Below are positions 225-22,399 of a stretch of 64,000 bases of DNA, in pieces (position 1 is the stretch's first letter; every line of letters begins with the position of its first letter). The DNA lies in the NCBI GenBank assembly GCA_030849465.1, contig JARVLF010000009.1, forward strand, positions 1 to 64,000. Reading direction: 5' to 3'. This DNA is from Moesziomyces globuligerus. Lineage: Eukaryota > Basidiomycota > Ustilaginomycetes > Ustilaginales > Ustilaginaceae. Position numbers and translations under genes: made by a program. Below the pieces are notes generated by a model. That model saw only the letters and a list, made by a program, of their open reading frames with translations, did not search any database and was not told the origin of the DNA.

Positions 225-1273
225 CAGCTCTCATCCAGCTCACCCGGACCACTGTTCAGCTTGCACAAACACACGTGAACAAAATGATATTCTCCTACTG
301 CCTAGAGTGTGTCAGCACCTCGTATCCATCACCCATAAGCTTGACAAGGCCCACATATGGCCCAACGCTGCCAACCGGAATGACCTGGCAGGACCACGCT
401 CTGCGCAGAAGCATGAGGTGGGCAATGTGAGTGTTGAACGCACCTGCCACACCGTGCAGCAGCAAGACCTCCTCCTCCGTGCTGAGCTCTGCATCACGCA
501 CAGCCAGCTTGTCGATGCAGGCATGGACGGCAACCCTGCTCCGTGCACCAATGTGATGCTCCACTGCCAGAGTGTTGTCCCGCAGCCAGTCTGTTGCTGC
601 CTCCTGGATCTCAATGGGACCTGGCCCACCGTGTTGATCTTCCAACGCAAAGGAGAGGCACTCCAGCATGGACTCGCGCATGCTGGCAAACTCATGCGTG
701 CGGACAAGACCGCTGAGGTCCCTCCGCAGGCTGAGCTTGCGGACAGCTTGGTCTGCAGGTATGCTTGCAAACAGCAGCCGTGCTGGATCCACAATGAGCG
801 TGCTGAGGTCAACGCCCAGCTGCCGGTTGAATGCCAGCGTGGCAATATGCATGCAGAATTTCTGCGCGCCAAGGGTGGCTTGGCACTCAGTGCAGCGGAT
901 GCGGAACTGATGGGCACCTCCACAGAGGATGTACGTGCCCACGTGCCGGCAACCCTGGCACCGCAGGTGGATTTGAATGCGCCCAAACAAATTCTTGGTC
1001 CGCTTGGGCGTGCTGAACCGCTCCAGCTCTTGCGCCAGATCCACCGCAGCTTGGTTGGACACCCACCATGCGGTGGGACTGTCCAGCGCTGTGGGCCGTC
1101 TGCCCAGATGCCAACCCATTGCATTGTACAGGTCCACCACGGCTTGCCGCTGCAGCCGTGTGGACTGCTTGCTGCTGTTGCCCCGGAAGAGCTGCTTCTG
1201 CTCTGCAACAGCAAGCAGCACGTCAAGATCCCTGAACATGTCTTCTGTCAGGGGTCGCGTGCCCGAAATCCTT

Positions 1274-1380
1274 ATTCGGCGAGTGACGTGGACTCGGCGA
1301 ATTATTTGACTCGTTCGGCGAGTGGCGTGGACTCGACGAATCGCCTGAGTTATTCGGCGAGTCGACGCGACTCAACGGAT
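1274..1380. repeat. 39-bp-period palindrome array (3 units) in solo LTR
   Basis: Units lie at 1274-1302, 1313-1341 and 1352-1380. Each is an 11-bp arm (consensus ATTCGNCGAGT), a 7-bp centre and the complementary arm (ACTCGNCGAAT), with 10-bp spacers. Arms are conserved with one or two mismatches, while centres and spacers differ. Unit starts are exactly 39 bp apart. Confidence 0.9.
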
Positions 1381-2020
1381 ATCGGCTGACCACTGTGAGC
1401 ACCCCGTTCAGAGGTAGCGCGGCACGACTCGATTGCTGCAGACGCCTTTGGGCGTCGTGGGAAGGACTTCCGTCTTTGCACGAGTGCTCGTAATGCTCAG
1501 ACAGTTGTCGAGGCACTGGTTGAGGTTCCAGGGCCGCAGTGGAGGTACTGCCTACGGTGTAGGTGCCGTAGCGTCGATGAAGGTGTCGACGACGTCTGAA
1601 GCGGTGATACAGCACACACGCAAGTAGTAGCAACGCTCTGCAATTGCTACTGTGAGACGAATGGACTGAAAGACAGTGATACTGACGAATGATAACGACT
1701 GGTGATGTAAAGTAAAGTAGAGTGGATGGGGCGCAGCCCCATCGCACTCGATGAGTCGAAGCTATAAGTACTTGCCCTCACCAGGAGGGCCAGCGTGTGG
1801 CAAGGTGCCGTCTTGGACGGCCCAGCCAGCATCCCATTGATGCAATGAGGTTTCGCCCACCTCCCCGAGCTCGGGCCTCCTCCTGTGCATACCTCCCTTT
1901 TGCACGTTGTGCTCGTTGCCCCCTGGGCCTACAAGCACCCCTCTCCTCCTCCCCTTCGTCTCCGAGCCGGGTACGTCCATCGTATGACCCGCTCGTTGTT
2001 TTCCGGGGTCGCCGCAGGCC

Positions 2021-2088
2021 GTCCGTCGAGTGGGCCTCACTCGGCGAATTATTGACGGCATTCGTCGAGTGGCCTCCACTCGCCGGAC
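2021..2088. repeat. 39-bp-period palindrome array (2 units) in solo LTR
   Basis: Units at 2021-2049 and 2060-2088 have the same 11-7-11 design and 10-bp spacer as the other arrays. They correspond to the pair near the start of the element B LTR. Confidence 0.88.
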
Positions 2089-4139
2089 CGCGACTTGGCG
2101 CGCTCGTAGCCCGTGCTACGGATTTTCGCCTGCGCCCTCCACACGTGCCTGCGTCGATCAGGGTCTGATCCAGGCCTGTAACATCTTCTTTCTTGATGGT
2201 GTGCGTCAGCAGCTGCTGCACTCCTGCTTGTGCGGTGAACAGGTAGCGTGGATCAAGGAAGCGGCTTGCCTTTGCCACTCGCTGCGCCTGCTGCATGGTG
2301 GCCGCTTGCACGGTGAGCTCCAGCCGGATGCCGCTGCCCACCTCTGGTGCTGTGCCAGAGACGCGCTCTTTCCACCTCTGCAGTGTGGCAATGCGGTCTT
2401 TCACCGTCTTCATGATCATCGGCTGACCTCCCTGCCCGGCACCTGCTGCTCCGGCTTTGAGCAGGTGCGTGAGTTTGGAATATGCCTTGAAATGGGAAAT
2501 TCCATCTGCACGGTGAGTCCACCGCAGCTCCACACTGCCAAAACCACGGCCAATGCGCAGAGCGCTGGGATACTGCTTGTAGCCGCCCTTCTTTGTTTTG
2601 GGTGCAAGCAGCATGACGTGGCCTGTGTCCACCGTGCAGCCAATGTCAAACACATTGAACGCCTGCATTGGATGCTCTGCTAGCGCAGCTGGATCCAGGA
2701 AGCGGTGGATGGGCACCTTGAAGCCGTACGCACCCATGCGTACACTCTGGCAGCCTATGTCCTGCAGCGCCTCCACCAGGATGCTGATCTCCACCCGCAG
2801 CTCTCCAAAGGTGAGCGTCTTGGGGTGTCCAGAGGGGACAAGGATGGCGTGTTGTGGCGGTCCCTGCAGCCGTGCTACAAGGGGGAGCTTCAACTGCGGT
2901 TCAAAGCGGAAGACCACCTTGAGCTCGGCAAAATAGACCCAATTGTCAAAGACGTGCATGTCCTTGAAATCAGGTGCATGGCTGATCAAGGACGCGTAGC
3001 AGCCAGCTGGAAAAATCTGCAGCATGCTGGCAGGAGAAATTGTCACCGCAAAGGAGTCCACATCCGTGTGGACAGGCACGTCCCAGTTGGAAATTGGTGC
3101 CATGGCTGGGATAGGCGGGAGTTCTGGAAGCTGCTCCCCTGTGTCCAGCACCAGCTGGGGTGCAGACGGTGCTTCTGCCTCCTCCTCAGCGGTGTCAAGA
3201 GCAGGCAGCAGTACCACAATACCGTCTGCTGGCATGTCTTGAATATCTTGCAGCTCTAGCGTATGCTGGGGACGTGCTTGTGTTGGTGCTGCAGGTCCTT
3301 CTTGGGGAAGGTACGGTAGCGTCTCTCCGTCTTCTTCTCCATCCAACTCCTGGTCAGAGTCTGTGTTGGTGTCAGGTCCATGTGGAGATAGGCTGGGCAC
3401 AAGACCAGGAGACGCGTCAATTTCCAGGGAAATATCCATCTCCAGTCTGTCTCCGTCTCCATCTTGCCCAGACTCTGGCTCTGGATCCACGTCTGGCTCC
3501 CGCTCAGAATCAGGGACGTGTATCTCCGCTGGAAAATCCAAGATTGGGCTCGGAGGCAGGCTGGGCACCAGACCAGAAGACGCGTCAATTTCCTGGAAAT
3601 TCTCCTCCTCCACATCCGCCTCCGTGCCTGTTGCCTCTGGGGCCAGTGGTGAGCTGGGAGACGGTGATGCTGTGTGCACGGGTGCTGGGCTTGCACTTGG
3701 AGGCGGCAGCGGGGCCAGAGCCTGCGCCAGCGCTGATGCAGCTGCCACAATGGCTGCTGCTGCGGTCTGCTCTGCCGGCGCTGATTCTGCCTGTGCTGGA
3801 ACAAAATTTTCATCTGTGGCTGCTGCCGCTGCCGCTGCTATGGCAGGCTGAGACTGTGCACCCTGGCACTTGCGGATGCCCTGGTGCTTACGCAGCGCTG
3901 CAGCATTCAGCACCACCTGGCCGCACGCGCATGCCACCAGCCCAACAGCAGCAGCTGCCTCCTGGCTGACATGTGCACCCTTGTGCGCCTTGCGCAAATG
4001 ATTGGTGATGTTTGTTGCCACATAGGAGAGACCGCAAACAGGGCAGGTTGTCCGTGACATATTGGCTGGCGGAGGGGAGTGGGTGATGTGATGGGCATTG
4101 ACGGGTGCACATCTCTGCTACTTGCCCTTGACGGTCTCC

Positions 4140-4358
4140 CTTTTGTAGCTGACCGTTTCACCAACTGTAGTGAACCGTCTCCATTTTTGAAGCGGACTGT
4201 CTCTCTGACTGTAGTGGACCATCTCCATTTTTGAAGCAGACCGTCTTTATTTCTGAAGTGGACTGTCTTGAGTTTTGAAGCAGACCGTCTTGATTTTTGA
4301 AGCGGACTGTCTTCCTGTGAAATTCAACGCGTCAGATTTTTGAATTGGACCGTCTTCC
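4140..4358. repeat. Degenerate 22-bp tandem array
   Basis: About nine units of roughly 22 bp with approximate consensus TTTTGAAGCGGACCGTCTT plus three variable bases. Several units have the variant TGTAGTGGACC instead of TTTGAAGCGGACC. The array lies about 80 bp upstream of the ATG of the minus-strand zinc-finger gene, so it occupies its promoter. On the other side it directly abuts the first codons of element A. It is not part of a recognisable LTR. Confidence 0.75.
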
Positions 4359-9485: not shown

Positions 9486-11181
9486 CTACTCCGACGGGTC
9501 GGTGGGGAGCGCGTCGCTCCACGCGCGCAGGTTGGCCATCGTCGTCTCCAGGTTCGGGAGGAAGGCCAGCACCGAACCCAGAGAGCGACGGTAAGGCGCG
9601 CCGCCGGGACGCGTCGCGCGCTCGGAGTAGACCGACGCGACGTCGCGCAGGGTCTCCTCCCAGTCCGTCGCGGCCTCCGACAGCGCACCAAACATCACCT
9701 GGGCCCGCTCAACAGTGTGGTTGAGCGAGGCCAGGTCCGTCTCCGGCTCGGCCGGCTGGCCGCGCGTCTGGGCGCGCGTGCAACGGCGCTCCTGCGCCGC
9801 CTCGGCCGGACGGTTCGGCTGGGAGCGGGCGCAGCGGCGGGCACGCTCGCGCTCGCGCGTCGCCTCGCTGGCGGCCTCGACGTCCCGACGGAGCTCCTCC
9901 TCAGCCAGAGGAAGCTCCCCAACCGTCTTGGCCGACAGCTTGACGTTGGGGTTGGGGTGCCGGCGGCGCCCGACCCCGTTCGCCCGCCAGTCGGCGAGCT
10001 GCGACGCGTAGACCCGCATGCGCAGCGGGCCCGTCGCGCCGGTCATCCTGGGCACTGAGGCCCGGCGGCAAAAAAAGGGAACACAAGGCAAAGGGTTAGC
10101 GCCACGCCACGAGACCGACCGACCACGACCAAAGCCACTTACCCGTCATGTCGACGTCGCACGGCACGCCGTGCCCAACGGTGCAGCGCCGGCAGCGCGG
10201 CTTGCCAGGCACGCGGACGCACTCCTCGCCCGCCTTGACGCAGGCGAAACAATCGCCCCACGTCCCCTCCCACAGCCCTGGGAGCTCATCGCCCACGACG
10301 TCGGGCGCGACGTGCTCCACCGGAGCAGCCTCCGCCCAAAGGGCGGCCGGCACCACGGCAAGGATGGTCGCGACCGGCGCGGCGGGAACGGCAGGCGGAG
10401 TGGCGGCGGGCGGAGCGCTGGCTGACGGCACTGGCGCCATCGCGACGTCGCCGTCGGCCTCGTCGTCGTCATCGTCTGTCAAAAAAAAACAGACACAGCG
10501 AGGTCAGTAAAGACGCGACCGAACAAACCCAGTCCCGACCGACTTACCAACCACGGTGACGGGCACCGGAGGAGAGCGCGCACCAGCCGACGCGGACGAA
10601 CAAGCGCCGGCCGACGCAGGGGACCGAGCGCCAGCCGACGCAGAGGAAGACGCGCCCCGCGACGCAGGCAGACGGACGCGCGGCTGCACATCCTCGGGCA
10701 GTGGCGCGTCCCGCTGGTAAGGCGCGGCGCGCGCGCGGCCGCGGCGCGTCGCGGGCGCGAGGGGCCCGACGAGGGCGCGACGGGCGTGGGCGCCCAGTCG
10801 GCCAAGCGAGCCGGGTCGGCCCAATCTACAGACAAAGGAGAAAAGGCAAGGCGAGGGGTAAGCGACGTTCCGGCAGACACCCCGACAGCACGACTTACCC
10901 GAAATGTGGCAGTTGATGCCGCCGGGGAAGGAGAAGGGAGCGGGCGAGGCCGCCGGGCGCGTTGCCGCCGTCGTACCTGTCGTCGCTACCACCACCAGAG
11001 CCCCGACCGTCAGTCGCGCAGCCCGACCAACGCGACGGAGCACCACGGCGCAAGGATACTCACCGTCGTCCATCGCGACATCGCCGTCGCGGTCGTCGTC
11101 GTCGTGCTGAGGGCGCGCCGGGCGGGCGGGAGGGTAAAGGCCCGACGCGAAAGGGTAGCGAGGGGAGGAGGGAGGCGACAT
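9486..11181 (-). CDS. Antisense spliced gene of element A with Zn2Cys6-like cluster
   Basis: This gene runs against gag-pol, between the chromodomain and the 3' LTR. I infer five exons: 11181-11064, up to about 10985-10899, 10825-10548, 10475-10143 and 10054-9486. Every junction has a GTGAGT or GTAAGT donor and an AG acceptor. The ATG follows a leader ending CTTCACC, with TATATA about 50 bp upstream. Exon 4 holds six cysteines spaced C-X2-C-X6-C-X8-C-X2-C-X7-C, which fits the fungal binuclear zinc-cluster pattern. Acidic tracts ending GDVAM occur just before it and in exon 1. Exon 5 is Arg/Glu/Ala-rich and may form a helix or coiled coil. Exon 3 does not stay in one frame with both neighbours, so a small indel or a missed junction is likely. 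Function is unknown; DNA binding is inferred from the cysteine pattern only. Confidence 0.6.
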
Positions 11182-11922: not shown

Positions 11923-12454
11923 AGTACCCTGTGCCACCATAGCAGTTTGCCTCTGTTTGAGTTGGAGCTCCCTGCCGCTGCCCCGCAGCTCCCGCACCTT
12001 CCTGCAGTAGGTCGCCTCTGCGTCCGACGGTGCTCTGGGTTCATCAAGTCGTCCAGGCCGCGCTACCTCTGTACAAGGCAACCACAGAGGTCCGTCAATA
12101 CCAAGTACTTGCGGAGGCAGTAGGCTCCTGCAAGCTGCAAGACCAGATTGGCTCTAAGACGCGCTTAGGATTGAAGTAAATCCAAATCGGCCCTAATGCG
12201 TTAGAACCGATCTAAATCAAAATTGGCTGTAAGCCACCCCGTACAGCCAAACCCCTTTCAACACCATCGGAACAGCCGGTATCAGGCACACGACCCCTGA
12301 CACCTGCCAGTACCGGGCCTACCAGTGACCCACCAACTCCCATATTGGTACTACCTGCCCGAGGCCTCCCCACCAGCCTGACTAAGCCCACTGGAGGTAT
12401 AAGACCCCCCAGGCGTAATAAATGCCTCTTTATTAGGTGCTGCCCATAGGCAGG
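11923..12454. other. Inter-element sequence with a possible relic LTR end
   Basis: No gene is seen. At about 12,285-12,302 the sequence GGCACACGACCCCTGACA nearly matches the last bases of the element B LTR (GGCACGCGACCCCTGACA), so an older related LTR may end here. Further on, a TATAAG near 12,398 and an AATAAA near 12,418 lie about 20 bp apart, which resembles a promoter/polyadenylation pair of another LTR fragment. The last five bases (GCAGG, 12,450-12,454) are the target duplication of element B. Confidence 0.4.
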
Positions 12455-12549
12455 TGTTACAGGCCTGGATCAGACCCTGATCGACGCAGGCACGTGTGGA
12501 GGGCGCAGGCGAAAATCCGTAGCACGGGCTACGAGCGCGCCAAGTCGCG

Positions 12550-12617
12550 GTCCGGCGAGTGGAGGCCACTCGACGAATGCCGTCAATAATTCGCCGAGTG
12601 AGGCCCACTCGACGGAC
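12550..12617. repeat. Palindrome array (2 units) in 5' LTR
   Basis: Units at 12,550-12,578 and 12,589-12,617 each have an 11-bp arm, 7-bp centre and 11-bp complementary arm, with a 10-bp spacer (period 39). They lie about 250 bp upstream of the LTR TATA-like sequence. Confidence 0.9.
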
Positions 12618-13258
12618 GGCCTGCGGCGACCCCGGAAAACAACGAGCGGGTCATACGATGGACGTACCCGGCTCGGAGACGAAGGGGAGGAGGAGAGGGG
12701 TGCTTGTTGGCCCAGGGGGCAACGAGCGTAACGTGCAAAGGGGAGTCATGCACGAGAGGAGGCCTGAGCCCGAGGGGGTGGGCGAAACCTCCTGGCATCA
12801 ATGAGATGCTAGCAGGGGCCGTTCGAGACGGCACCTTGCCACACGCTGGCCCTCCTGGTGAGGGCAAGTACTTATAGCTTCGACTCATCGAGTGCGATGG
12901 GGCTGCGCCCCATCCACTCTACCTTACTTTACAGCACTCAGTCGTTATCATTCGTCAGTATCACTGTCTTTCAGTTACTTCGTCTCACAGTAGCAATCGC
13001 AGGGCGTTGCTACTACTTGCGTGTGTGTTGTATCACCGCTTCAGACGCCGTCGACACCTCCATCGGCGCTACGGCACCTACACCGTAGGCAGTACCTCCA
13101 CTGCGGCCCTGGAACCTCCACCAGTGCCCGACAACCGTCTGAGCATTACGAGCACTCGTGCAAAGACGGAAGTCCTTCCCACGACGCCCAAAGGCGTCTG
13201 CAGCAATCGAGTCGTGCCGCGCTACCTCTGAACGGGGTGCTCACAGTGGTCAGCCGAT

Positions 13259-13365
13259 ATCCGTTGAGTCGCGTCGACTCGCCGAATAACTCAGGCGATT
13301 CGTCGAGTCCACGCCACTCGCCGAACGAGCCAACTAATTCGCCGAGTCCACGTCACTCGCCGAAT
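13259..13365. repeat. Palindrome array (3 units) at end of 5' LTR
   Basis: Units at 13,259-13,287, 13,298-13,326 and 13,337-13,365 have exact 39-bp period. The last ends 28 bp before the LTR terminus. The third unit has fully complementary arms apart from none or one base, while its 7-bp centre differs from the others. Confidence 0.9.
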
Positions 13366-13399
13366 AAGGATTTCGGGCACGCGACCCCTGACATTAGAG

Positions 13400-13413
13400 T
13401 GGATCGTTCAAGC
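13400..13413 (+). other. Possible primer-binding site of element B
   Basis: Six bases after the 5' LTR a TGG opens TGGATCGTTCAAGC. A site beginning TGG, complementary to the CCA end of a tRNA, is expected here. I could not match it to a specific tRNA, and some chromoviruses prime in other ways. Confidence 0.3.
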
Positions 13414-13431
13414 AGTTCCCCACGACTCACC

Positions 13432-14859
13432 ATGGCGGACGAGACCCTCGTCAAGAAGCTGGACGAGCTCATCAGCCTGGTCAAGGCCCAGCTCGAGCTT
13501 ACCACCCGGGTAAATCAAGATGCCATGACGGCCCGAGCCCGCCAGCACCTTGCCGAGCGTCTCTCGCAGGTTCCCGAGGAGCATGCCGACGAATCCTCGT
13601 TCGCCGACCCGCCCACCCCTACGCCTGCGGCTCGTCCTCGCCGATCGGTATCCTTCGCTGACGATGGCGAACGCACCTACACCGACCGCGAGACGTACTC
13701 GACTCCGACTGGCAGTCGCTACACGAAGCCAAGGACGGAGGCCGCCTCAGGCGAGGAGGGGTACGATACCATCTCGCTCGAGGATCTTCCGCATAGCCAG
13801 CAGAAGTCCCTCTCGACGCCCTTCCCCAAGTTCAACCCCCGTGACGTCGAACTCTTCGTGATCGAGGCCGAGGCCTGGTTCAAATTCAACCGAGTCTACG
13901 ACCACGAGACGATGATCAACTACACGGGCACCCAGCTTGACGGCAGCGCTCGCGAGTGGTGGACCTCCAAGCTCCGAGTCGACCGGCCACGCCAAGGCAA
14001 GTTGTTCCATGACTGGCACTTCTTCACGAAGCGCCTCTCAGAGCAGTACAACCCGCGCAACGTCAGGATGGAGGCCTACAACAAGCTGTTGGCCCTTCGA
14101 CTCACTAGCGACACTCCGGGCGCGGCCACTCGCCACGTCGAACGGTTCCGCGATCTCGAGAGCCAGGTCAACCTCGAGGACACCGAGTTGCTCATCGACT
14201 TGTTCCGAGGCAGTCTGACTCGCAGCCTGCAGGAGAAGTTCGAGCGCAACCCACCCAGCGACCGTTGGGGGTGGTATCGCGAGGTCGAAGAGATTGACAG
14301 GCAGAGGATGTCTCTGCAGCAGTCTGCTTCCCGGCACCCGAGCCTACCGGCCCCGCGCGGGGGCATAGCAGCAAGCCAGCGCCCTGTAGGGCCCGCCGCG
14401 GGCAGCCCAGCCCGCCAGCCTGCCCCTCCGGCGCCTGGCACGCCGTACCGGCCCGGCAACAGGCCGCTGCCGCCGCACTTGGCGCAGAACCTTAGGCCAC
14501 GCGCCCCGGCCGGTAGCGCAGGACCCACAACGTTTGGCAGCACGGTTTGCCACCTGTGCCAAGGTACAGGCCACTGGGCACGAGACTGCCCAAGCAGGAA
14601 GGCACCGCCGGCAACCCCGAGGCCGGCTGGCCCAAGGGTCTCAGTGGCACTCGAGGACCCGCAACAAGGCGACCAGCCTCCGGAGGAAGCCGTGGAGGCG
14701 GAGCAGGCTGACGATGGTGAGGACTACGGGTACGACTCGGTCGATCAAGAGCCCCTGGACCTCACCCAGTTCGAAGGCCCTGTTGCGGCCGCCAACCACG
14801 CAGCTCCTCGAGACGACAACGATGACGCCCAGGAAAACTGCTATGGGGCGATGCACTAA
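13432..14859 (+). CDS. Gag of element B
   Basis: The 475-residue protein starts at the ATG in CACCATGGCGG, a good initiation context, 39 bp after the LTR. It has a helical N-terminal stretch, a Ser/Thr/Pro linker, a Retrotrans_gag capsid domain (roughly residues 125-290, including the WW pair and the conserved YNP), a Pro/Ala-rich basic stretch, one canonical zinc knuckle C-X2-C-X4-H-X4-C near residue 370 and an acidic tail. It forms the cytoplasmic particle and binds the element RNA. Its stop codon overlaps the pol ATG as TAATG, suggesting that ribosomes terminate and reinitiate to make pol. Confidence 0.92.
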   Translation: MADETLVKKLDELISLVKAQLELTTRVNQDAMTARARQHLAERLSQVPEEHADESSFADPPTPTPAARPRRSVSFADDGERTYTDRETYSTPTGSRYTKPRTEAASGEEGYDTISLEDLPHSQQKSLSTPFPKFNPRDVELFVIEAEAWFKFNRVYDHETMINYTGTQLDGSAREWWTSKLRVDRPRQGKLFHDWHFFTKRLSEQYNPRNVRMEAYNKLLALRLTSDTPGAATRHVERFRDLESQVNLEDTELLIDLFRGSLTRSLQEKFERNPPSDRWGWYREVEEIDRQRMSLQQSASRHPSLPAPRGGIAASQRPVGPAAGSPARQPAPPAPGTPYRPGNRPLPPHLAQNLRPRAPAGSAGPTTFGSTVCHLCQGTGHWARDCPSRKAPPATPRPAGPRVSVALEDPQQGDQPPEEAVEAEQADDGEDYGYDSVDQEPLDLTQFEGPVAAANHAAPRDDNDDAQENCYGAMH

Positions 14860-17800
14860 TGGCATGCATGGCCCTACATCCCTGGACGCCATCCATCTGT
14901 AAATATCAAGATTGCGCTCTTTGTTTCTCAGCCAGCGACGGCAAGGCGGTGCTCGAGTTGACCGGAACGGTCCAAGGCCATCCGGCTCGCATCCTCGCCG
15001 ACACCGGCGCTGGCCTGTCCATAGTCTCAGGTTCGTTCGCCCGCAAACACAAAATACCATCAAAAACAGCAAAAACAACAACAATACATGGTGTCACCGG
15101 GCACCAGATGACCACGCGGTCCATGGCGATGACCCGTGTAGCAATTGGGGGCCACGACCTCGGCCCGGTGCCCGCGTGGGTAGTGGACGTGGCCGACTAC
15201 GACTTCATCCTGGGGTATCGGGCCCTACGCCGGCTCAAACCAACTATCCATTGGGATACCGGGCAACTCGAGTTCGAGCTGCTAGGGCCGATGCAGGCCT
15301 ATAACGCGTCCCAGGATGACGGGTCGCTTCTACCGAGAGCTGTCGAGGAAGGCGCTCGGCGAATTTCGGTGGTGTCCGCCGAGTCGTGCCCACTCGCCGA
15401 GCCTCCACCTTCGTCCGCCGAGACGCGTCGACTCGGCGAATTACCGCCCCTGTCCGTCGAGTCGACCCCACCCGCCGAACGTCAAACTTCGGCAAAGCTC
15501 CACGGCCACGAGTTTGTATCCGCCGAACGCTTGATGCAAGCAGCCGTCGAAGACGGCCCAATTGGGTTCATGCTTCTAGAGGATCCATGGGATTCCCTCC
15601 CGGCGTTCGGTTTCGTGCCCACCGGAGCCGACAAGGGGGTGGAGATGGAGGTGGAGCCCGACAAGCCGGTGTCGGTCGAAGAGATCCCAGAGCCTTACAG
15701 GCACCTGCGAGGCGTCTTCGACGAGGTGGAGGCAGACCGGCTACCGCCTCATACGGACCATGACCTCCGCATCGACTTGGTTGAGGGTAGCAAGCCCCCT
15801 CAAGGGCCGCTGTACCTCAAGGGGCCCAAGGAGATGGCAGAGCTACGCAAGTACTTGGACGAGAATCTCGCCAAGGGCTTCATTCGGCCATCAAAGAGCC
15901 CGGCGCGGTCACCGGTGCTCTTCGTACCCAAGAAGGACGGTGGCCTTCGTCTCTGTGTCGACTACAGAGGGCTCAACGAGATTACGATCAAGAATCGCGC
16001 GCCACTGCCGCTCATTGAGGAGCAGCTATTTCTCCTCCGCAGGGCCAAGATCTATTCGAAGCTGGACCTCAAGGCAGCATACAACCTGATTCGCATTTCA
16101 AGTGGCGATGAATGGAAGACGGCATTCGGGACCCAGCTTGGGCTGTACGAGTACTTGGTGATGCCGTTCGGCCTGGCAAATGCTCCAGCACACTTCCAGT
16201 CGTTCGTCAACCACATCTACCGCGACATCATTGGTGTGTATGTGGTGGTGTACTTGGACGACTTCCTCATCTTCAGCGACACACTGGACGAGCACATCAA
16301 ACACGTCACAGAGGTGCTCACAAGGCTCAAGCAGCACAGGCTCTTCGCCAAGTTGTCCAAGTGTGCTTTCCACACCGACACGGTCGAATTCCTGGGGTAC
16401 ATCATCAAGCCCTCCGGGATTGAGATGGACCCAGAGAAGGTCCGCACAGTCAGGGAATGGCCTATGCCGGAGTCGATCCACGACATCCAGCGTTTCCTTG
16501 GGTTTGCGAACTTCTACCGACGGTTCATCGCCCACTTCGCCCGGATCGCCAAGCCTCTCACGGCCCTGGTGAAGCCAACGGAACGCTTCAAGAAGTTCGA
16601 GCTGCCGGAAGACGCCAAGCAGGCCTTCCACAAGCTCATACAAGCGTTCACGACGGCAGGAGTGCTAAGACACTTCGATTACCACCTGCCAACGCGGCTC
16701 GAGACGGACGCCAGCGACTTTGCCATCGCCGGGGTCCTGAAGCAGGAGCACGAGGGCCGGTGGCACCCGGTCGCATACTACTCGCGGAAGATGGCGCCCG
16801 CCGAGAAGAACTACGAGATCCATGACAAGGAGCTTCTCGCAGTTGTGGCATGCCTCACCCAGTGGCGCCATATGCTTGCAGGGCTGCCTAGCCAGCTCGT
16901 TATTCTCACGGACCACGAGGCGCTCAAGTACTTCAAGTCGCAACGCCGCATCACGGGCAGGCAGGCACGCTGGGCGGTGTTGCTAGCAGACTTCAACTTC
17001 GTGTTGCAGTATCGGCCAGGGGATAAGGCCGGCGAGCCTGACGCCCTGACTCGGCGTCGCGACATGGAGCCGGCAGGCGAGGAGCGCGAGCATAACGTGC
17101 GGCAACTATTGCCCTCCCGCGTATTTGCGGTAGAGGACGAGCCAATTCGGCGAGTCCTTGCAACTCGACGAACGTCCGCCGAGTCACCGGAACTCGACGG
17201 ACGCGCGCCGACCATGGCCAATATCGCCTCGGAAGGACTGCTAGGCCTCGCCAAGACCTTCCAACCGCTCGATAAAGAGTTGGCCGAGCTGCACGCCAAA
17301 ACACCGTTCGAGGAGAAGAACGGAGTGTGGTACAAGGAGGGCCGGTTGGTAGTGCCGAAGGTAACCATGCCAGGTAGCACCACCGACCGCAAGACTCGTC
17401 ACGCCCGCGAGGTGGACGAGCAGTCGCTGTCGGTGGAGCACCTTCGCTTCATGGTAATGTCGCAGTGCCATGACGGAGTGGCGGCCGGCCACGTTGGCCG
17501 CGACGCCACGCTGCACCTGGCACGACGACACTACTGGTGGCCAGGCATGACAACCTGGATAGCGGACTACGTCGCGAGCTGCCCTGTCTGCGCCAGATAC
17601 AAAGCGCCCAGACACAAGCCATACGGCTTGCTGCAGCCACTCGCAACGCCGCAACGGCCATGGGGCTCCATATCGATGGACTTCATCGAAGGCCTGCCAC
17701 TGTCGAGCGGGTACGACTCCATCTTGGTAATCGTCGACCGCTTGACCAAGTATGCAGTTGTCGCCCCGACGCACAAGACAGCGACAGCCGAGCAAACCGC

Positions 17801-18719
17801 CGAGCTCCTCAAGCGTCACTTGTTCGCCCACTTTGGCGTCCCGGACCACATTGTGTCGGACAGGGGACGCCAGTTCATCTCGAAGACCTGGAGCGAGTTC
17901 GTCAGCAACTTAGGAGCAAGGCACTCACTCAGCACGGCCTACCACCCGCAGACGGATGGCCAGACGGAGCGTGTCAACCAAGTCCTGGAGCAGTACCTTC
18001 GCATGTACTGCAACTACCAGCAGAACGACTGGGCTAGCCTGCTCAGCGGGGCCGCTTTCGTCTACAACAACACGGTGCACACGAGCATCGGCGTCTCGCC
18101 CTTCTTCGCGTGCTACGGCTGGCACCCAAAGTCTCACCCGGAGATCCCGGCCAAGCTCGGCGTAAACGACACCAGTCGGGCCGAGTTCTTGGCGCAGGGC
18201 AGCGAGCGGTTCCACTATCTGCAAGACCAGATCCGGCAAGCACAACGCCGAGCGGTCGAGCAGTACAACCGCAAGCACAAGGACATCGAGTTCAAGGTCG
18301 GCGACCTGGTCTACGTCAACCGAAAGAACTGGATGACCAAAAGGCCGTCGCCCAAGCTCGATACGAGGTTCGCCGGCCCATTCCCGGTGAAAGAACGCAT
18401 CGGCAGACGGGCATATCGCCTCACTTTGCCCGCAAGCCTCCGCGTGCATGACGTCTTCCACGTCTCGATGCTGGAGCCCGCCAAGAGCAGCGCGCTCCCT
18501 CAACGCGAGTTGCTACCGGTGGAACCGCCTCTGCCGGACGAAGAGCTAGAATACGAGGTGGAGGCCATCATCGGCAAGCGCGTCCGAAACCGCCAGGTCG
18601 AATACAAGGTCCTATGGCGCGGCTACTCAGAGGAAGCAGCATCCTGGGAGCCCACCGACCTCCTCAGCTGTCCAGACCTCATCCGGGAGTATGAGGAGTT
18701 GGCGGGGGGACGGGCCTAG
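14859..18719 (+). CDS. Pol polyprotein of element B (PR-RT-RNaseH-IN-chromodomain)
   Basis: An intact 1286-residue polyprotein. The aspartic protease motif ADTGAG lies near residue 48; reverse transcriptase has YLDD near residue 465; RNase H follows. The integrase zinc domain (HHCC) spans about 865-910, the integrase core has D near 940, D near 998 and E near 1036, and a chromodomain occupies about 1232-1280. The start is the ATG that overlaps the gag stop by one base. Two linkers hold in-frame palindrome arrays: between protease and RT (15,374-15,480) and between RNase H and integrase (17,145-17,202). They add low-complexity Ser/Glu/Pro/Arg residues outside the folded domains. No frameshift or internal stop is present, so the element could be active. 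Confidence 0.95.
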   Translation: MACMALHPWTPSICKYQDCALCFSASDGKAVLELTGTVQGHPARILADTGAGLSIVSGSFARKHKIPSKTAKTTTIHGVTGHQMTTRSMAMTRVAIGGHDLGPVPAWVVDVADYDFILGYRALRRLKPTIHWDTGQLEFELLGPMQAYNASQDDGSLLPRAVEEGARRISVVSAESCPLAEPPPSSAETRRLGELPPLSVESTPPAERQTSAKLHGHEFVSAERLMQAAVEDGPIGFMLLEDPWDSLPAFGFVPTGADKGVEMEVEPDKPVSVEEIPEPYRHLRGVFDEVEADRLPPHTDHDLRIDLVEGSKPPQGPLYLKGPKEMAELRKYLDENLAKGFIRPSKSPARSPVLFVPKKDGGLRLCVDYRGLNEITIKNRAPLPLIEEQLFLLRRAKIYSKLDLKAAYNLIRISSGDEWKTAFGTQLGLYEYLVMPFGLANAPAHFQSFVNHIYRDIIGVYVVVYLDDFLIFSDTLDEHIKHVTEVLTRLKQHRLFAKLSKCAFHTDTVEFLGYIIKPSGIEMDPEKVRTVREWPMPESIHDIQRFLGFANFYRRFIAHFARIAKPLTALVKPTERFKKFELPEDAKQAFHKLIQAFTTAGVLRHFDYHLPTRLETDASDFAIAGVLKQEHEGRWHPVAYYSRKMAPAEKNYEIHDKELLAVVACLTQWRHMLAGLPSQLVILTDHEALKYFKSQRRITGRQARWAVLLADFNFVLQYRPGDKAGEPDALTRRRDMEPAGEEREHNVRQLLPSRVFAVEDEPIRRVLATRRTSAESPELDGRAPTMANIASEGLLGLAKTFQPLDKELAELHAKTPFEEKNGVWYKEGRLVVPKVTMPGSTTDRKTRHAREVDEQSLSVEHLRFMVMSQCHDGVAAGHVGRDATLHLARRHYWWPGMTTWIADYVASCPVCARYKAPRHKPYGLLQPLATPQRPWGSISMDFIEGLPLSSGYDSILVIVDRLTKYAVVAPTHKTATAEQTAELLKRHLFAHFGVPDHIVSDRGRQFISKTWSEFVSNLGARHSLSTAYHPQTDGQTERVNQVLEQYLRMYCNYQQNDWASLLSGAAFVYNNTVHTSIGVSPFFACYGWHPKSHPEIPAKLGVNDTSRAEFLAQGSERFHYLQDQIRQAQRRAVEQYNRKHKDIEFKVGDLVYVNRKNWMTKRPSPKLDTRFAGPFPVKERIGRRAYRLTLPASLRVHDVFHVSMLEPAKSSALPQRELLPVEPPLPDEELEYEVEAIIGKRVRNRQVEYKVLWRGYSEEAASWEPTDLLSCPDLIREYEELAGGRA
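15374..15480. repeat. Palindrome array (3 units) inside pol, protease-RT linker
   Basis: Units at 15,374-15,402, 15,413-15,441 and 15,452-15,480 have exact 39-bp period, i.e. 13 codons, so the reading frame is kept. A more degenerate copy may lie one period upstream, around 15,335-15,363. Arms match the LTR palindromes, while centres and spacers differ. Confidence 0.88.
17145..17202. repeat. Two abutting palindromes inside pol, RNaseH-integrase linker
   Basis: Units at 17,145-17,173 and 17,174-17,202 abut with no spacer, unlike the 10-bp spacer elsewhere. Each still has the 11-7-11 structure. The stretch is translated in frame. Confidence 0.85.
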
Positions 18720-18764
18720 ACAGGCGGCGGGGAAGGAGCGCGGCGGAGGGGGCGCTCAGAGAGG

Positions 18765-18871
18765 ATTCGGCGAGTATAGCGGACTCGACGAATTTGCAGG
18801 ATGATTCGGCGAGTCGAGGCGACTCGACGAATTGCAAACTCGATCCGCCGAGTGCGCGTCACTCGGCGGAT
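18765..18871. repeat. Palindrome array (3 units) just after pol
   Basis: Units at 18,765-18,793, 18,804-18,832 and 18,843-18,871 have 39-bp period. The third has perfectly complementary 11-bp arms (ATCCGCCGAGT and ACTCGGCGGAT). The second can extend to a 13-bp stem with a 3-base loop and one mismatch. The array sits between the pol stop and the 3' end of the antisense gene. Confidence 0.92.
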
Positions 18872-19036
18872 AGGGAACCAGCCCGACGCGAAGACCAGGA
18901 GGGCAACAACAAGCACACAGCCAGGGGACTCAACGACCAGAAGCTCGCTCAGGCTGGTCGCAGGCAAGCTCAACGGGGACAGGTCACAGTCTCACACAAG
19001 CAAGAAGAGCCAAGACGCTGGGATTATCTCACGTCG

Positions 19037-20613
19037 CTACATGTCGATGTAAGAGCCGTCGCTGGGGCCCGGAGGGAAGACGGGCTCGTCAATAGGGTCA
19101 GGGGCCCCACCAGACACGGCGACGGACTCGTGCGGCTGACGCTCCGAGTATAGCGAGTGCCAACACTCCGAGAAGCGCAGCATCACCCGCAGCAGGGGAA
19201 GGCGCAGGCGGGCCGCCTGGATCCGGAATACTCGGCGGGTCGCAACGGTCCAACCGAAGGTCTCGGTCGGGATGGTCATCCGGTCGTACGACCGAATGGC
19301 GCCTGGGCCGGGAGCACCGGCCACCGACAAGTTGGCACGCTCGGCACGTTGGCGCGAGCGACCCGTGGGAGTGCCGTCGCCCGGGTACTCCATCCCGGGG
19401 AAGGCGCGAATGCTCCGCTCGCAGTTGCCAACGTCGGCAAGGTGGCAGTGAGTGCACACCCGCGGAAGGCGACTACGCTCCCCGTACGGGTTGGGGAACG
19501 CCGAGGGGAAGCAACTGTGAAGGAGAGGAGAAGGTCAGCAACCGCCAAGGCAAGGACACGAGCAGGGCACAATACTTACGGGACTCCCAGGTCAGCGCAC
19601 CGGCGGCACTGCCAACTCGGCCAAGGCATGCAGCCCTCGGTCAAGCGCATCATGACGATGCGCTGTAGCCGCTGCTCGGCGTTAGAGCCCGCCGCGACGA
19701 GCCAGTTCCGAGGGTATCGACCCTCGGCCACGCGCACCAACAAGTCGGCAACCTCGTACTGCCCCGACCAGCCGATGATCTCGGCATGCGACGGCTCGCG
19801 TTGGTCGGGGGGCGGCGGCGACGGGGTGCGAGGCACCTCCCACCGAGGGGGAGGCGTCAGTCGCTGCACATCCCGCTCGAAGACGGGTGTGGCAGACCGA
19901 CCGAGGGGCGGGGAAGGCTCAGCGCGGCCGGGGGACGTGGGGACGGCGGCCTCGACGCCGTCGGAAGCAGCCACCGGGGACGAGGGGACCACGTAGACGG
20001 CCCCCCAGCGCTCCAGCTGCTCCCCCAGCGACAACCCAACCGCGGCAGCTCGACGCTCGCGGTTGAGACGCGCCTCCTCGGCCGCCGCAGCCATGCCCTC
20101 CGCGGTCGGGGACGGCGGGGAGTACGACGGCGACCGTGGCTCGGAGGCCAGCGACGGGCTGGCCGGCACGGGGGGCGGCGACCAAGGGGCGTACACCGGG
20201 CTCCGAGGCGGCGACAGCGGGGCAGGGCTGCCCGAAGCCAGGCCGCTGGACGGCGGGGAGCCCAGGAAAAGGGCCTCCAGCGGCGCACAGCCACTGGAGT
20301 CGGGGGCCGAGGCGGATGCAGCTCGCGGCGGCGGCGGGGTGACGGCCGGCACGGGGGCTGACTCCGCGGCCGAAGCAGACGCGCCGCGCGGGCGCAGGCG
20401 CGAAGGGACCTTGCGCCGCTTCGACAGTGTCGACTCGGCCCCAGGGGAGGCCAAGCGGCGAGGAGATGCCGGCCCAACGGGGGCCGAGGGAGCGGATGGC
20501 CCGGCCGAGGAGTCGGCAGGGCGAGGAGGAGGCAGCGAGGCGGAGGCCGCGCGAGCGGCAGCCGCACGGGCGCGGGTCACGCGCGGGGAGGAGCGCACGT
20601 TGGAGGGCGCCAT
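19037..20613 (-). CDS. Antisense spliced gene of element B with Zn2Cys6-like cluster
   Basis: The gene lies opposite gag-pol. Exon 1 is 20,613-19,580 and exon 2 is 19,514-19,037. The 65-bp intron has a GTAAGTATT donor, a TGCTGACC branch-like site and a CTTCACAG acceptor, and splicing keeps the frame to give 503 residues. The ATG sits in CACCATGGCG after a pyrimidine-rich leader. The first 250 residues are Ser/Pro/Ala-rich with basic patches (RARAAAARA, KRRK). A more ordered part follows (about 290-340). Then come six cysteines spaced C-X2-C-X6-C-X18-C-X2-C-X7-C; the intron falls just before the third one. This resembles a fungal Zn2Cys6 cluster with a long loop. The gene in element A has the same cysteine order. 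I infer a nuclear DNA- or RNA-binding accessory protein; the role is unknown. Confidence 0.7.
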
Positions 20614-20676
20614 GGTGAAGACGGGGATGGTGGAGAGAGAGACACGAACACGGCCTCGACGGAGCTCGGCTCTTAC

Positions 20677-20687
20677 GAGGGGGGTAG
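20677..20687 (+). other. Polypurine tract of element B
   Basis: GAGGGGGGTAG directly precedes the 3' LTR start at 20,688, the expected site for plus-strand priming. Confidence 0.55.
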
Positions 20688-20782
20688 TGTTACAGGCCTG
20701 GATCAGACCCTGATCGACGCAGGCACGTGTGGAGGGCGCAGGCGAAAATCCGTAGCACGGGCTACGAGCGCGCCAAGTCGCG

Positions 20783-20850
20783 GTCCGGCGAGTGGAGGCC
20801 ACTCGACGAATGCCGTCAATAATTCGCCGAGTGAGGCCCACTCGACGGAC
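20783..20850. repeat. Palindrome array (2 units) in 3' LTR
   Basis: Units at 20,783-20,811 and 20,822-20,850. They lie about 170-240 bp upstream of the antisense gene's ATG, a typical distance for an upstream regulatory site. Confidence 0.9.
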
Positions 20851-21491
20851 GGCCTGCGGCGACCCCGGAAAACAACGAGCGGGTCATACGATGGACGTAC
20901 CCGGCTCGGAGACGAAGGGGAGGAGGAGAGGGGTGCTTGTTGGCCCAGGGGGCAACGAGCGTAACGTGCAAAGGGGAGTCATGCACGAGAGGAGGCCTGA
21001 GCCCGAGGGGGTGGGCGAAACCTCCTGGCATCAATGAGATGCTAGCAGGGGCCGTTCGAGACGGCACCTTGCCACACGCTGGCCCTCCTGGTGAGGGCAA
21101 GTACTTATAGCTTCGACTCATCGAGTGCGATGGGGCTGCGCCCCATCCACTCTACCTTACTTTACAGCACTCAGTCGTTATCATTCGTCAGTATCACTGT
21201 CTTTCAGTTACTTCGTCTCACAGTAGCAATCGCAGGGCGTTGCTACTACTTGCGTGTGTGTTGTATCACCGCTTCAGACGCCGTCGACACCTCCATCGGC
21301 GCTACGGCACCTACACCGTAGGCAGTACCTCCACTGCGGCCCTGGAACCTCCACCAGTGCCCGACAACCGTCTGAGCATTACGAGCACTCGTGCAAAGAC
21401 GGAAGTCCTTCCCACGACGCCCAAAGGCGTCTGCAGCAATCGAGTCGTGCCGCGCTACCTCTGAACGGGGTGCTCACAGTGGTCAGCCGAT

Positions 21492-21598
21492 ATCCGTTGA
21501 GTCGCGTCGACTCGCCGAATAACTCAGGCGATTCGTCGAGTCCACGCCACTCGCCGAACGAGCCAACTAATTCGCCGAGTCCACGTCACTCGCCGAAT
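21492..21598. repeat. Palindrome array (3 units) at end of 3' LTR
   Basis: Units at 21,492-21,520, 21,531-21,559 and 21,570-21,598 are the 3' LTR copies of the array at 13,259-13,365. Confidence 0.9.
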
Positions 21599-21626
21599 AA
21601 GGATTTCGGGCACGCGACCCCTGACA

Positions 21627-22399
21627 GCAGGTACCATTCCAACATATGGGCCCCAAGGTGATGTGCCAGTCCGGTCAAGCCAGCACTTGTCAACAGTGAT
21701 TCCATCTGTTTGGCAGCATAGCAGCTAATACCTGCCATCAGGGCTTTCAACACTCTCATCCCACTTGGCCCTTCGCTCTAACAGGCAAGCACACATAGGC
21801 GCAGGCAGCAGGTAAGGCCGCCCCGCAGTCGCCTGAGCCGCCCCCTACCCTCACGAATTGACTGCCTTTGCACAGGCACAGCCCGCAGCCTGAGGTCGTC
21901 CATCCCAGCATTGGCAACCACGAAATCATCCAAGACGTGCTCGAGGCGCCCAACGAGGCGCAGCACAGGAGTGCGTCGGACTGCTCATCAGGCCAGATGT
22001 TATGCTCTCCGGCATTTGACCGGATGACATTGCACGTGCGGGCAAGGGGTGTGCAAGCCGTGCCGAAGCAACCGTGACGGGGCCGCGGCCCAGAGGCGTG
22101 AGGCAGCCATTTGCCACATGCCAGCGGGCCTCGCGCCAGCGACGCCAGGCGCAGATGGCTCCGAGGTCAGAGGGTGATGGTGCGGTGACCGCTCGGGCGT
22201 TTGGGCTTCGCAGGTCACACGGCACTCTGCCGTCGCTGCGCCCGGCTGCGCATCGATGCTACTGATTGGCTGAACGCTCTCACTCTTGATCTTGTGCGAT
22301 TTCTCACTTCACGTCCTCCGTCATTCAGCCACGTTGGCATTCAACCTGACCGGTTCTCATAGCGCAAGATGTTGATTTTGAAGGAGGAGCTCTTCCTGC
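21627..22399. other. Intergenic sequence between element B and PUP2
   Basis: It begins with the target duplication GCAGG. Only short, compositionally random ORFs are present. The last part is the 3' flank of the proteasome gene. I see no RNA gene or repeat. Confidence 0.6.

What the first reader, a model, noticed from the sequence alone, without database searches (positions are those of the whole stretch)
12550..21598. 29-bp palindromes (11-7-11) at a fixed 39-bp period throughout element B
Eighteen clear copies of ATTCGNCGAGT-N7-ACTCGNCGAAT lie in element B (five per LTR, three between protease and RT, two between RNase H and integrase, three after pol), plus five in the solo LTR. Within an array the units start exactly 39 bp apart, so half-sites alternate at 18 and 21 bp. 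The arms are conserved, while the 7-bp centres and 10-bp spacers vary in sequence but not in length. This is what selection on spaced protein-binding sites, or on hairpins, would produce; plain tandem duplication would also copy the spacers. The exception (17,145-17,202) has two units abutting. I know of no described element feature of this form.
Basis: partly seen in the sequence, partly recalled or inferred. Interest (0 to 1): 0.88.

Follow-up and report, generated by a model that had tools for sequence, protein, structure and literature searches.

The report
Palindrome arrays throughout a smut retrotransposon
A jumping gene in a smut fungus carries evenly spaced clusters of the same short two-armed DNA motif from end to end, even inside its own enzyme gene, and the pattern of change looks like landing sites for a DNA-binding protein, possibly one that the element encodes on its opposite strand.

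Summary
Element B holds 18 units of the 11-7-11 palindrome and the solo LTR five. Of 14 within-array steps in the window 13 are 39 bp and one is 29. Genome-wide there are 302 units against 0 for the reversed pattern; 294 lie in DNA that aligns with this one Ty3/gypsy chromodomain family, 3 lie outside such DNA, 5 were not placed.

Selection acts on the arms as DNA. In non-coding arrays core arm positions vary about seven times less than flanks, spacers about three times more; inside pol the contrast is weak. The arms show no compensatory change, so hairpins are not what is kept. Pol reads the motif in two frames. Some smut relatives keep codon-compatible units in the same linkers, some 13 residues (39 nt) apart; the U. 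hordei protein tested does not.

An unreported spliced antisense gene (minus 20613-19037) encodes a cysteine-rich protein under purifying selection, matched in this genome only at family B loci.

Best reading: sites for a dimeric DNA-binding protein, perhaps the antisense product, as in VANDAL/VANC. The binder is inferred, not shown.

The parts
12450..12454 (.). target-site duplication GCAGG (left)
12455..13393 (+). 5' LTR of element B, 939 bp, identical to the 3' LTR
12550..12617 (.). array LTR_a, two units 39 bp apart
13259..13365 (.). array LTR_b, three units 39 bp apart, ending 67 bp before the likely gag ATG
13433..14859 (+). gag from its likely ATG (Retrotrans_gag, zinc knuckle)
   Evidence: start codon is my reading
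14826..18719 (+). pol, 1297 aa: protease, RT, RNase H, integrase, chromodomain
15374..15480 (.). array PR-RT, three units 39 bp apart, codon phase 2
17145..17202 (.). array RNaseH-IN, two abutting units, codon phases 0 and 2
18765..18871 (.). array POST, three units, between the 3' ends of pol and of the antisense gene
19037..19514 (-). antisense gene exon 2 with second Cys cluster and stop; pooled pN/pS 0.088 over 12 copies
19515..19579 (-). 65-bp intron, GTAAGT...CACAG, inferred by reading; homologues P0121 and P0127-P0131 continue across this point as one protein
19580..20613 (-). antisense gene exon 1 with first Cys cluster; open in 10 of 12 copies, pooled pN/pS 0.326 over those 10
20688..21626 (+). 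3' LTR
20783..20850 (.). array LTR_a in the 3' LTR, about 170 bp upstream of the antisense ATG
21492..21598 (.). array LTR_b in the 3' LTR
21627..21631 (.). target-site duplication GCAGG (right)
1246..2183 (-). solo LTR of the same family with five units (1274-1380 and 2021-2088)

Best explanation
Each 29-bp unit is an operator for a dimeric sequence-specific protein: one subunit reads each 11-bp arm, the 7-bp centre sets the dimer's reach, and the 10-bp spacer puts the facing arms of neighbouring dimers 21 bp (two helical turns) apart so that dimers can touch. Arrays sit before gag, before the antisense gene, between the two convergent 3' ends and in the two pol linkers, so the bound protein would act along the whole element. 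The most likely binder is the element's own antisense-encoded cysteine-rich protein, acting as an auto-regulator or anti-silencing factor in the way VANC proteins act on motif arrays of VANDAL elements. Shown: arrays, arm-core conservation in the non-coding arrays, restriction to the family, antisense gene under selection. Inferred: protein binding (about 0.8), antisense protein as binder (about 0.35), anti-silencing rather than another regulatory role (about 0.5 given that binder). The confidence below is for the chain up to the binder.
For: Core arm positions 2, 9, 10, 11 in non-coding arrays: diversity 0.009 against 0.064 in non-CpG flanks and 0.214 in non-CpG spacers. No co-variation between arms, so each arm is constrained alone. 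Motif read in codon phases 0 and 2. Codon-compatible units in the same linkers of P0003, P0019, P0052 with 0 mismatches (shuffles 0-0.1) and of P0001 with 1-2 mismatches at residues 521, 534, 547, i.e. 13 aa apart. 294 of 302 units lie in DNA that aligns with family B, and 477 of 694 exact single arms of the genome lie there, so a dedicated binder fits. Antisense protein: pooled pN/pS 0.326 (exon 1, 10 of 12 copies) and 0.088 (exon 2, 12 of 12), pol 0.113 (7 copies); the 27 matches in this genome all fall in family B loci; C-x2-C-x6-C and C-x2-C spacing kept in most homologues.
Against: No binding was measured. The antisense protein matches no Pfam DNA-binding family and both structure models are of low confidence (pLDDT 51 and 45). 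U. hordei and Ustilago sp. UG-2017a/b have antisense-protein homologues, yet the three of their pol proteins that I back-translated (P0004, P0009, P0037) have no 0- or 1-mismatch unit and most of those aligned have short linkers (P0114 has a long PR-RT linker). Whether their LTRs hold arrays is untested. In pol, non-CpG arm positions are more variable than flanks (0.094 against 0.059); the four-fold-site test at specified positions points the other way but weakly (0.033 against 0.088, P = 0.10). In non-coding arrays all non-CpG arm positions pooled, degenerate ones included, differ from flanks only at P = 0.06.
Confidence: 0.35

Rival explanations
1. The arrays bind a host protein, as gypsy binds Su(Hw) (recalled): an activator, insulator or architectural factor that the element exploits.
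For: Same arm-level selection as above. About 217 of the 694 exact single arms of the genome lie outside family B DNA seen here, so a host factor could have other sites. YCG-N-CGR cores resemble fungal zinc-cluster sites (recalled).
Against: Paired units are nearly absent elsewhere: 3 of 302 lie outside DNA aligning with family B and 5 were not placed. Single arms outside family B (about 217) are not in excess of the reversed control (428 genome-wide). Sites in pol and after pol are odd for a promoter factor.
Confidence: 0.35
2. The arrays bind another element protein (Gag, integrase) or help pack, move or integrate the cDNA.
For: They recur along the whole cDNA at steps of about 0.7-2.0 kb and integrase has a chromodomain.
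Against: Stretches of related pol-bearing families have no unit at up to 5 mismatches: element A, its copy L037 and L063.
Confidence: 0.1
3. RNA hairpins or DNA cruciforms are selected.
For: The five array segments fold better than shuffles: z from -1.6 to -5.4.
Against: That follows from any palindrome. No compensatory change at any arm position; position 6 is unpaired in 11 of 13 unit slots, and changes at positions 4, 7 and 8 show no association between the arms.
Confidence: 0.07
4. No function: a palindromic module that spread inside the element by tandem duplication and template switching.
For: Centres in different arrays are more alike than chance (2 identical cross-array pairs, null 0.29, P 0.03; 8 within one change, null 3.6, P 0.02). 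In pol the arms are not clearly conserved.
Against: In non-coding arrays arm cores stay while spacers diverge; codon-compatible units persist in the same linkers of some relatives; the motif is read in two codon phases.
Confidence: 0.08

Closest known systems
VANDAL transposons with VANC anti-silencing proteins (Arabidopsis; PMC5735166, abstract and passages seen)
   Same: A mobile element with a short motif in dense arrays that is largely confined to its own family, arrays related by tandem duplication, and a protein of its own.
   Different: VANDALs are DNA transposons (recalled); their motif YAGTATTAY is short, arrayed in one orientation and mainly in non-coding DNA, and binding is proven. 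Here an LTR element, a 29-bp two-armed unit at fixed 39-bp period, also inside pol, antisense gene, binding unproven.
gypsy insulator with Su(Hw) sites (Drosophila; recalled; one search gave a listing only)
   Same: A Ty3/gypsy element with an array of protein sites.
   Different: One array in one place, host-encoded binder, sites not palindromic at a fixed period (recalled).
En/Spm with TnpA sites (recalled)
   Same: Repeated short motifs in direct and inverted orientation read by the element's own protein.
   Different: DNA transposon, subterminal sites only.
Antisense accessory genes of LTR elements (plant Tat/Ogre lineages, HTLV HBZ; recalled)
   Same: Gene on the opposite strand between pol and the 3' LTR.
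   Different: No comparison with those proteins was made; fungal element, spliced, Cys-rich protein with homologues found only in smuts or unnamed sources.

Membership tests
Ty3/gypsy chromodomain LTR retrotransposon | PR-RT-RH-IN order with chromodomain | tested here: met
   Pfam scan
Ty3/gypsy chromodomain LTR retrotransposon | LTRs and 5-bp target-site duplication | tested here: met
   939/939 identical LTRs, GCAGG both sides
VANDAL/VANC anti-silencing system | motif arrays confined to the element family | tested here: met
   294 of 302 units in DNA aligning with family B, 3 outside, 5 not placed
VANDAL/VANC anti-silencing system | element-encoded lineage-specific protein under selection | tested here: met
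VANDAL/VANC anti-silencing system | protein is a homologue of VANC | not tested
   VANC was not compared; no Pfam family at E <= 1 for P0121, P0122, P0124
VANDAL/VANC anti-silencing system | protein binds the motif and removes methylation | not testable with these tools
   needs binding and methylation data
Zn2Cys6 transcription factor (candidate for the antisense protein) | C-x2-C-x6-C-x(5-12)-C-x2-C-x(6-8)-C (recalled) and Pfam match | tested here: not met
   half-clusters have similar spacing but a loop of about 18 residues; no Pfam hit
RNA hairpin element | compensatory change between arms | tested here: not met
independently mobile palindromic insert (MITE or RPE type) | copies outside the host element | tested here: not met
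   3 of 302 units outside DNA aligning with family B, 5 not placed
gypsy-type insulator | insulator activity through a host protein | not testable with these tools
   no functional data

The most novel reading that the evidence does not exclude
A fungal LTR retrotransposon with a self-contained chromatin control system: a spliced antisense gene makes a cysteine-cluster protein that coats palindromic operator arrays placed along the element, including inside pol, to keep it from being silenced or to regulate it; arrays and protein co-evolve by lineage.
Probability: 0.3. Interest if true: 0.87.

Novelty: new variant of a known kind. Interest (0 to 1): 0.74.

Why it matters
Sequence-specific anti-silencing by a mobile element is, as far as I recall, proven only for plant DNA transposons; a fungal LTR element with its own operator arrays and candidate binder would extend it to retrotransposons and another kingdom. 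Arrays inside a polyprotein gene would also show a DNA signal imposed on coding sequence. The protein-DNA pair is small and can be tested in vitro.

Tried and rejected
Hairpin or cruciform selection: rejected by pair counts. Coding-repeat explanation (39 bp = 13 codons): rejected because the arrays also sit in LTRs and after pol, and because pol reads the motif in two phases. Free-standing palindromic insert: rejected, units stay almost wholly in family B. A general feature of gypsy elements of this genome: rejected for the stretches seen of element A, L037 and L063, no unit at up to 5 mismatches; other families (listed) were not fetched. Strict co-occurrence of pol-linker arrays with the antisense gene: first suggested (5 homologues, none named from U. 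hordei), then weakened when the profile search found homologues in U. hordei and UG-2017a/b. Structure prediction of P0121: two low-confidence models, not used for fold searches. PDB sequence search: only weak bromodomain matches, E >= 1.3. DNA of relatives elsewhere: viral contigs gave 0 pattern matches and no confirmed pol relative. A text-pattern pull of linkers from the 120 listed relatives caught few RNaseH-IN linkers and was used only as a look. The gag dN/dS step failed (no gag copy was kept) and was not repeated.
Full report
What is there. Element B is a complete Ty3/gypsy element at 12455-21626: identical 939-bp LTRs, GCAGG duplications, gag, and an intact pol of 1297 aa with protease, RT, RNase H, integrase and chromodomain. 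Pol is open at full length at 9 places in the genome; LTR-matching stretches of at least 670 bp number 41, a lower bound since 40 of 53 candidates were scored.

Beyond chance. The unit pattern at up to 2 mismatches has 302 forward sites in the 18.5-Mb genome and 0 for the reversed control. Fetched loci plus the window hold 297 of the 302. Of these 294 lie in stretches of at least 150 bp that align with element B and 3 (L026, L027) do not. Five were not placed; L064, fetched to look for them, gave none. In 257 Gb of prokaryote contigs the exact TTCG core matches 24 stretches, none at 39-bp period. Of 187 within-array steps in window and L005-L037, 173 are 39, 11 are 29, 2 are 40, 1 is 105.

What is conserved. 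I aligned each array across copies (34, 33, 12, 9 and 10 distinct sequences for LTR_a, LTR_b, PR-RT, RNaseH-IN, POST). In non-coding arrays, arm positions 2, 9, 10 and 11 have mean diversity 0.009, non-CpG flanks 0.064 and non-CpG spacers 0.214; neither difference was reached in 20,000 permutations. All non-CpG arm positions together give 0.042 against 0.064, P 0.06. Arm CpGs decay at close to the flank rate (0.074 against 0.091), mainly at positions 4 and 8, while positions 5 and 7 hardly change. In pol the picture is weaker: non-CpG arm positions 0.094 against flanks 0.059, that is more variable, while four-fold sites at specified arm positions vary less than flanking four-fold sites, 0.033 (21 sites) against 0.088 (77), P 0.10. 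The RNaseH-IN arms have no change at specified positions in 9 distinct sequences; the PR-RT arms change as much as their flanks (0.083 against 0.086). The arm is RTYCGBCGAGT, with A at position 6 in 2 of 202 arms.

Not a hairpin and not a peptide. Across 101 distinct units no arm position pairs more often than shuffled partners; position 6 pairs in 11 of 101 (shuffle 29). Units are related, so I repeated it on the 13 unit slots of the window: 2 of 13 at position 6 (shuffle 3.9), 8 and 7 of 13 at positions 1 and 3 (shuffle 6.6 and 6.2). Array RNA folds better than shuffles, as any palindrome would. In pol the first RNaseH-IN unit is in codon phase 0 and the other four units in phase 2, so different peptides carry the same DNA motif.

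Other smuts. The protein search scored 3824 pol relatives, 120 listed; I aligned 21 of them with the window. Linkers are short in the U. hordei and most UG-2017 proteins, and longer in U. trichophora (P0001), P0003 (unnamed source), Melanopsichium (P0019, P0052) and some others (P0002, P0026, P0058, P0114). I back-translated the window and 10 of the 120. Zero-mismatch codon-compatible units: window 3, P0003 2, P0019 1, P0052 1, the other seven 0; shuffled proteins 0-0.1. All of these zero-mismatch hits lie in the two linkers; some one-mismatch hits lie elsewhere (for instance window residue 1285, P0001 residue 9, P0019 residue 943). P0001 has hits of 1, 1 and 2 mismatches at residues 521, 534 and 547, and P0003 hits of 1 and 0 at 158 and 171, that is 13 residues or 39 nt apart. 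This is compatibility at the protein level, not proof at the DNA level.

The antisense gene. On the minus strand 20613-19037 lies a two-exon gene. Its intron is inferred, and homologues P0121 and P0127-P0131 continue across the junction as one protein. Exon 1 is open in 10 of 12 copies (one of these ten lacks the ATG) and exon 2 in 12 of 12. Pooled pN/pS is 0.326 and 0.088, against 0.113 for pol (7 copies). In this genome the 27 matches to P0121 all fall in family B loci. Homologues: 5 in the first search, 11 by profile including U. hordei and Ustilago sp. UG-2017a/b. No Pfam family matches P0121, P0122 or P0124 and models were poor. A C-x2-C-x6-C ... C-x2-C pattern kept in most homologues suggests a zinc domain; that is my reading.

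How it would work. The near-palindrome with independently kept arms fits a dimer, and the 10-bp spacer sets facing arms two turns apart. An array lies upstream of gag, another upstream of the antisense ATG in the 3' LTR, one between the convergent 3' ends and two in pol. A protein spread like this suits chromatin-scale control better than a single promoter. The nearest parallel I know is VANDAL/VANC (PMC5735166; abstract and passages seen). A host factor is about as likely as the element's own protein; I lean to the latter because paired units are nearly absent from the rest of the genome, single arms outside family B (about 217 of 694) show no excess over the reversed control (428), and the antisense protein is held by selection in the same family. 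The U. hordei result keeps this below even odds.

Origin. Centres in different arrays resemble each other somewhat (2 identical cross-array pairs, null 0.29, P 0.03), so one ancestral array probably spread within the element. Stretches of related families without arrays (element A, L037, L063) suggest that it is a lineage trait.

Print. Searches, judged by titles and abstract openings, listed no paper describing such arrays in a smut retrotransposon. PMC9603552 (passages only) treats smut LTR elements and has no occurrence of 'palindrom' or 'antisense'. Only open-access text is covered.

Counts were redone: the figure for units inside family B is now 294 (aligned) rather than 297 (in fetched loci), and the weaker result inside pol is stated in full.

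Noticed in passing
window 19037-20613, minus strand: Spliced antisense Cys-rich gene in the 3' part of element B, under purifying selection, with homologues in U. trichophora, U. hordei and Ustilago sp. UG-2017a/b.
   Followed up: partly
window about 9486-11155, minus strand: Element A also seems to carry an antisense gene at its 3' end (a short first exon with a GTGAGT donor near 11,060 and an ORF at 9486-10145, by reading); the P0121 genome search found no match there.
   Followed up: no
window 4141-4358: Array of a 22-bp unit (GAAGYRGACYGTCTT core) just upstream of element A's gag; no such array was found in the related stretch L037.
   Followed up: no
12579-12588, 13288-13297, 13327-13336, 18794-18803, 18833-18842: The 10-bp spacers of the non-coding arrays are hypervariable, about three times the flank diversity at non-CpG sites, with constant length in nearly every copy; faster than the neighbouring LTR sequence and unexplained.
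   Followed up: partly
window 14826-14859: pol overlaps the end of gag in a different frame (+1 relative to the gag ATG at 13433, my arithmetic), so pol needs a frameshift or another mechanism.
   Followed up: no
contig ends of C4, C7, C8, C9, C11, C12, C14, C15, C17-C23 (positions, contig lengths): Most family B copies or solo LTRs lie within some tens of kilobases of contig ends, suggesting subtelomeric enrichment; C6:1067591 and C12:173872 are exceptions.
   Followed up: no
L026:1570 and L027:215, 254: Three units, two of them 39 bp apart, that lie outside stretches aligning with element B; perhaps remnants of diverged copies.
   Followed up: no
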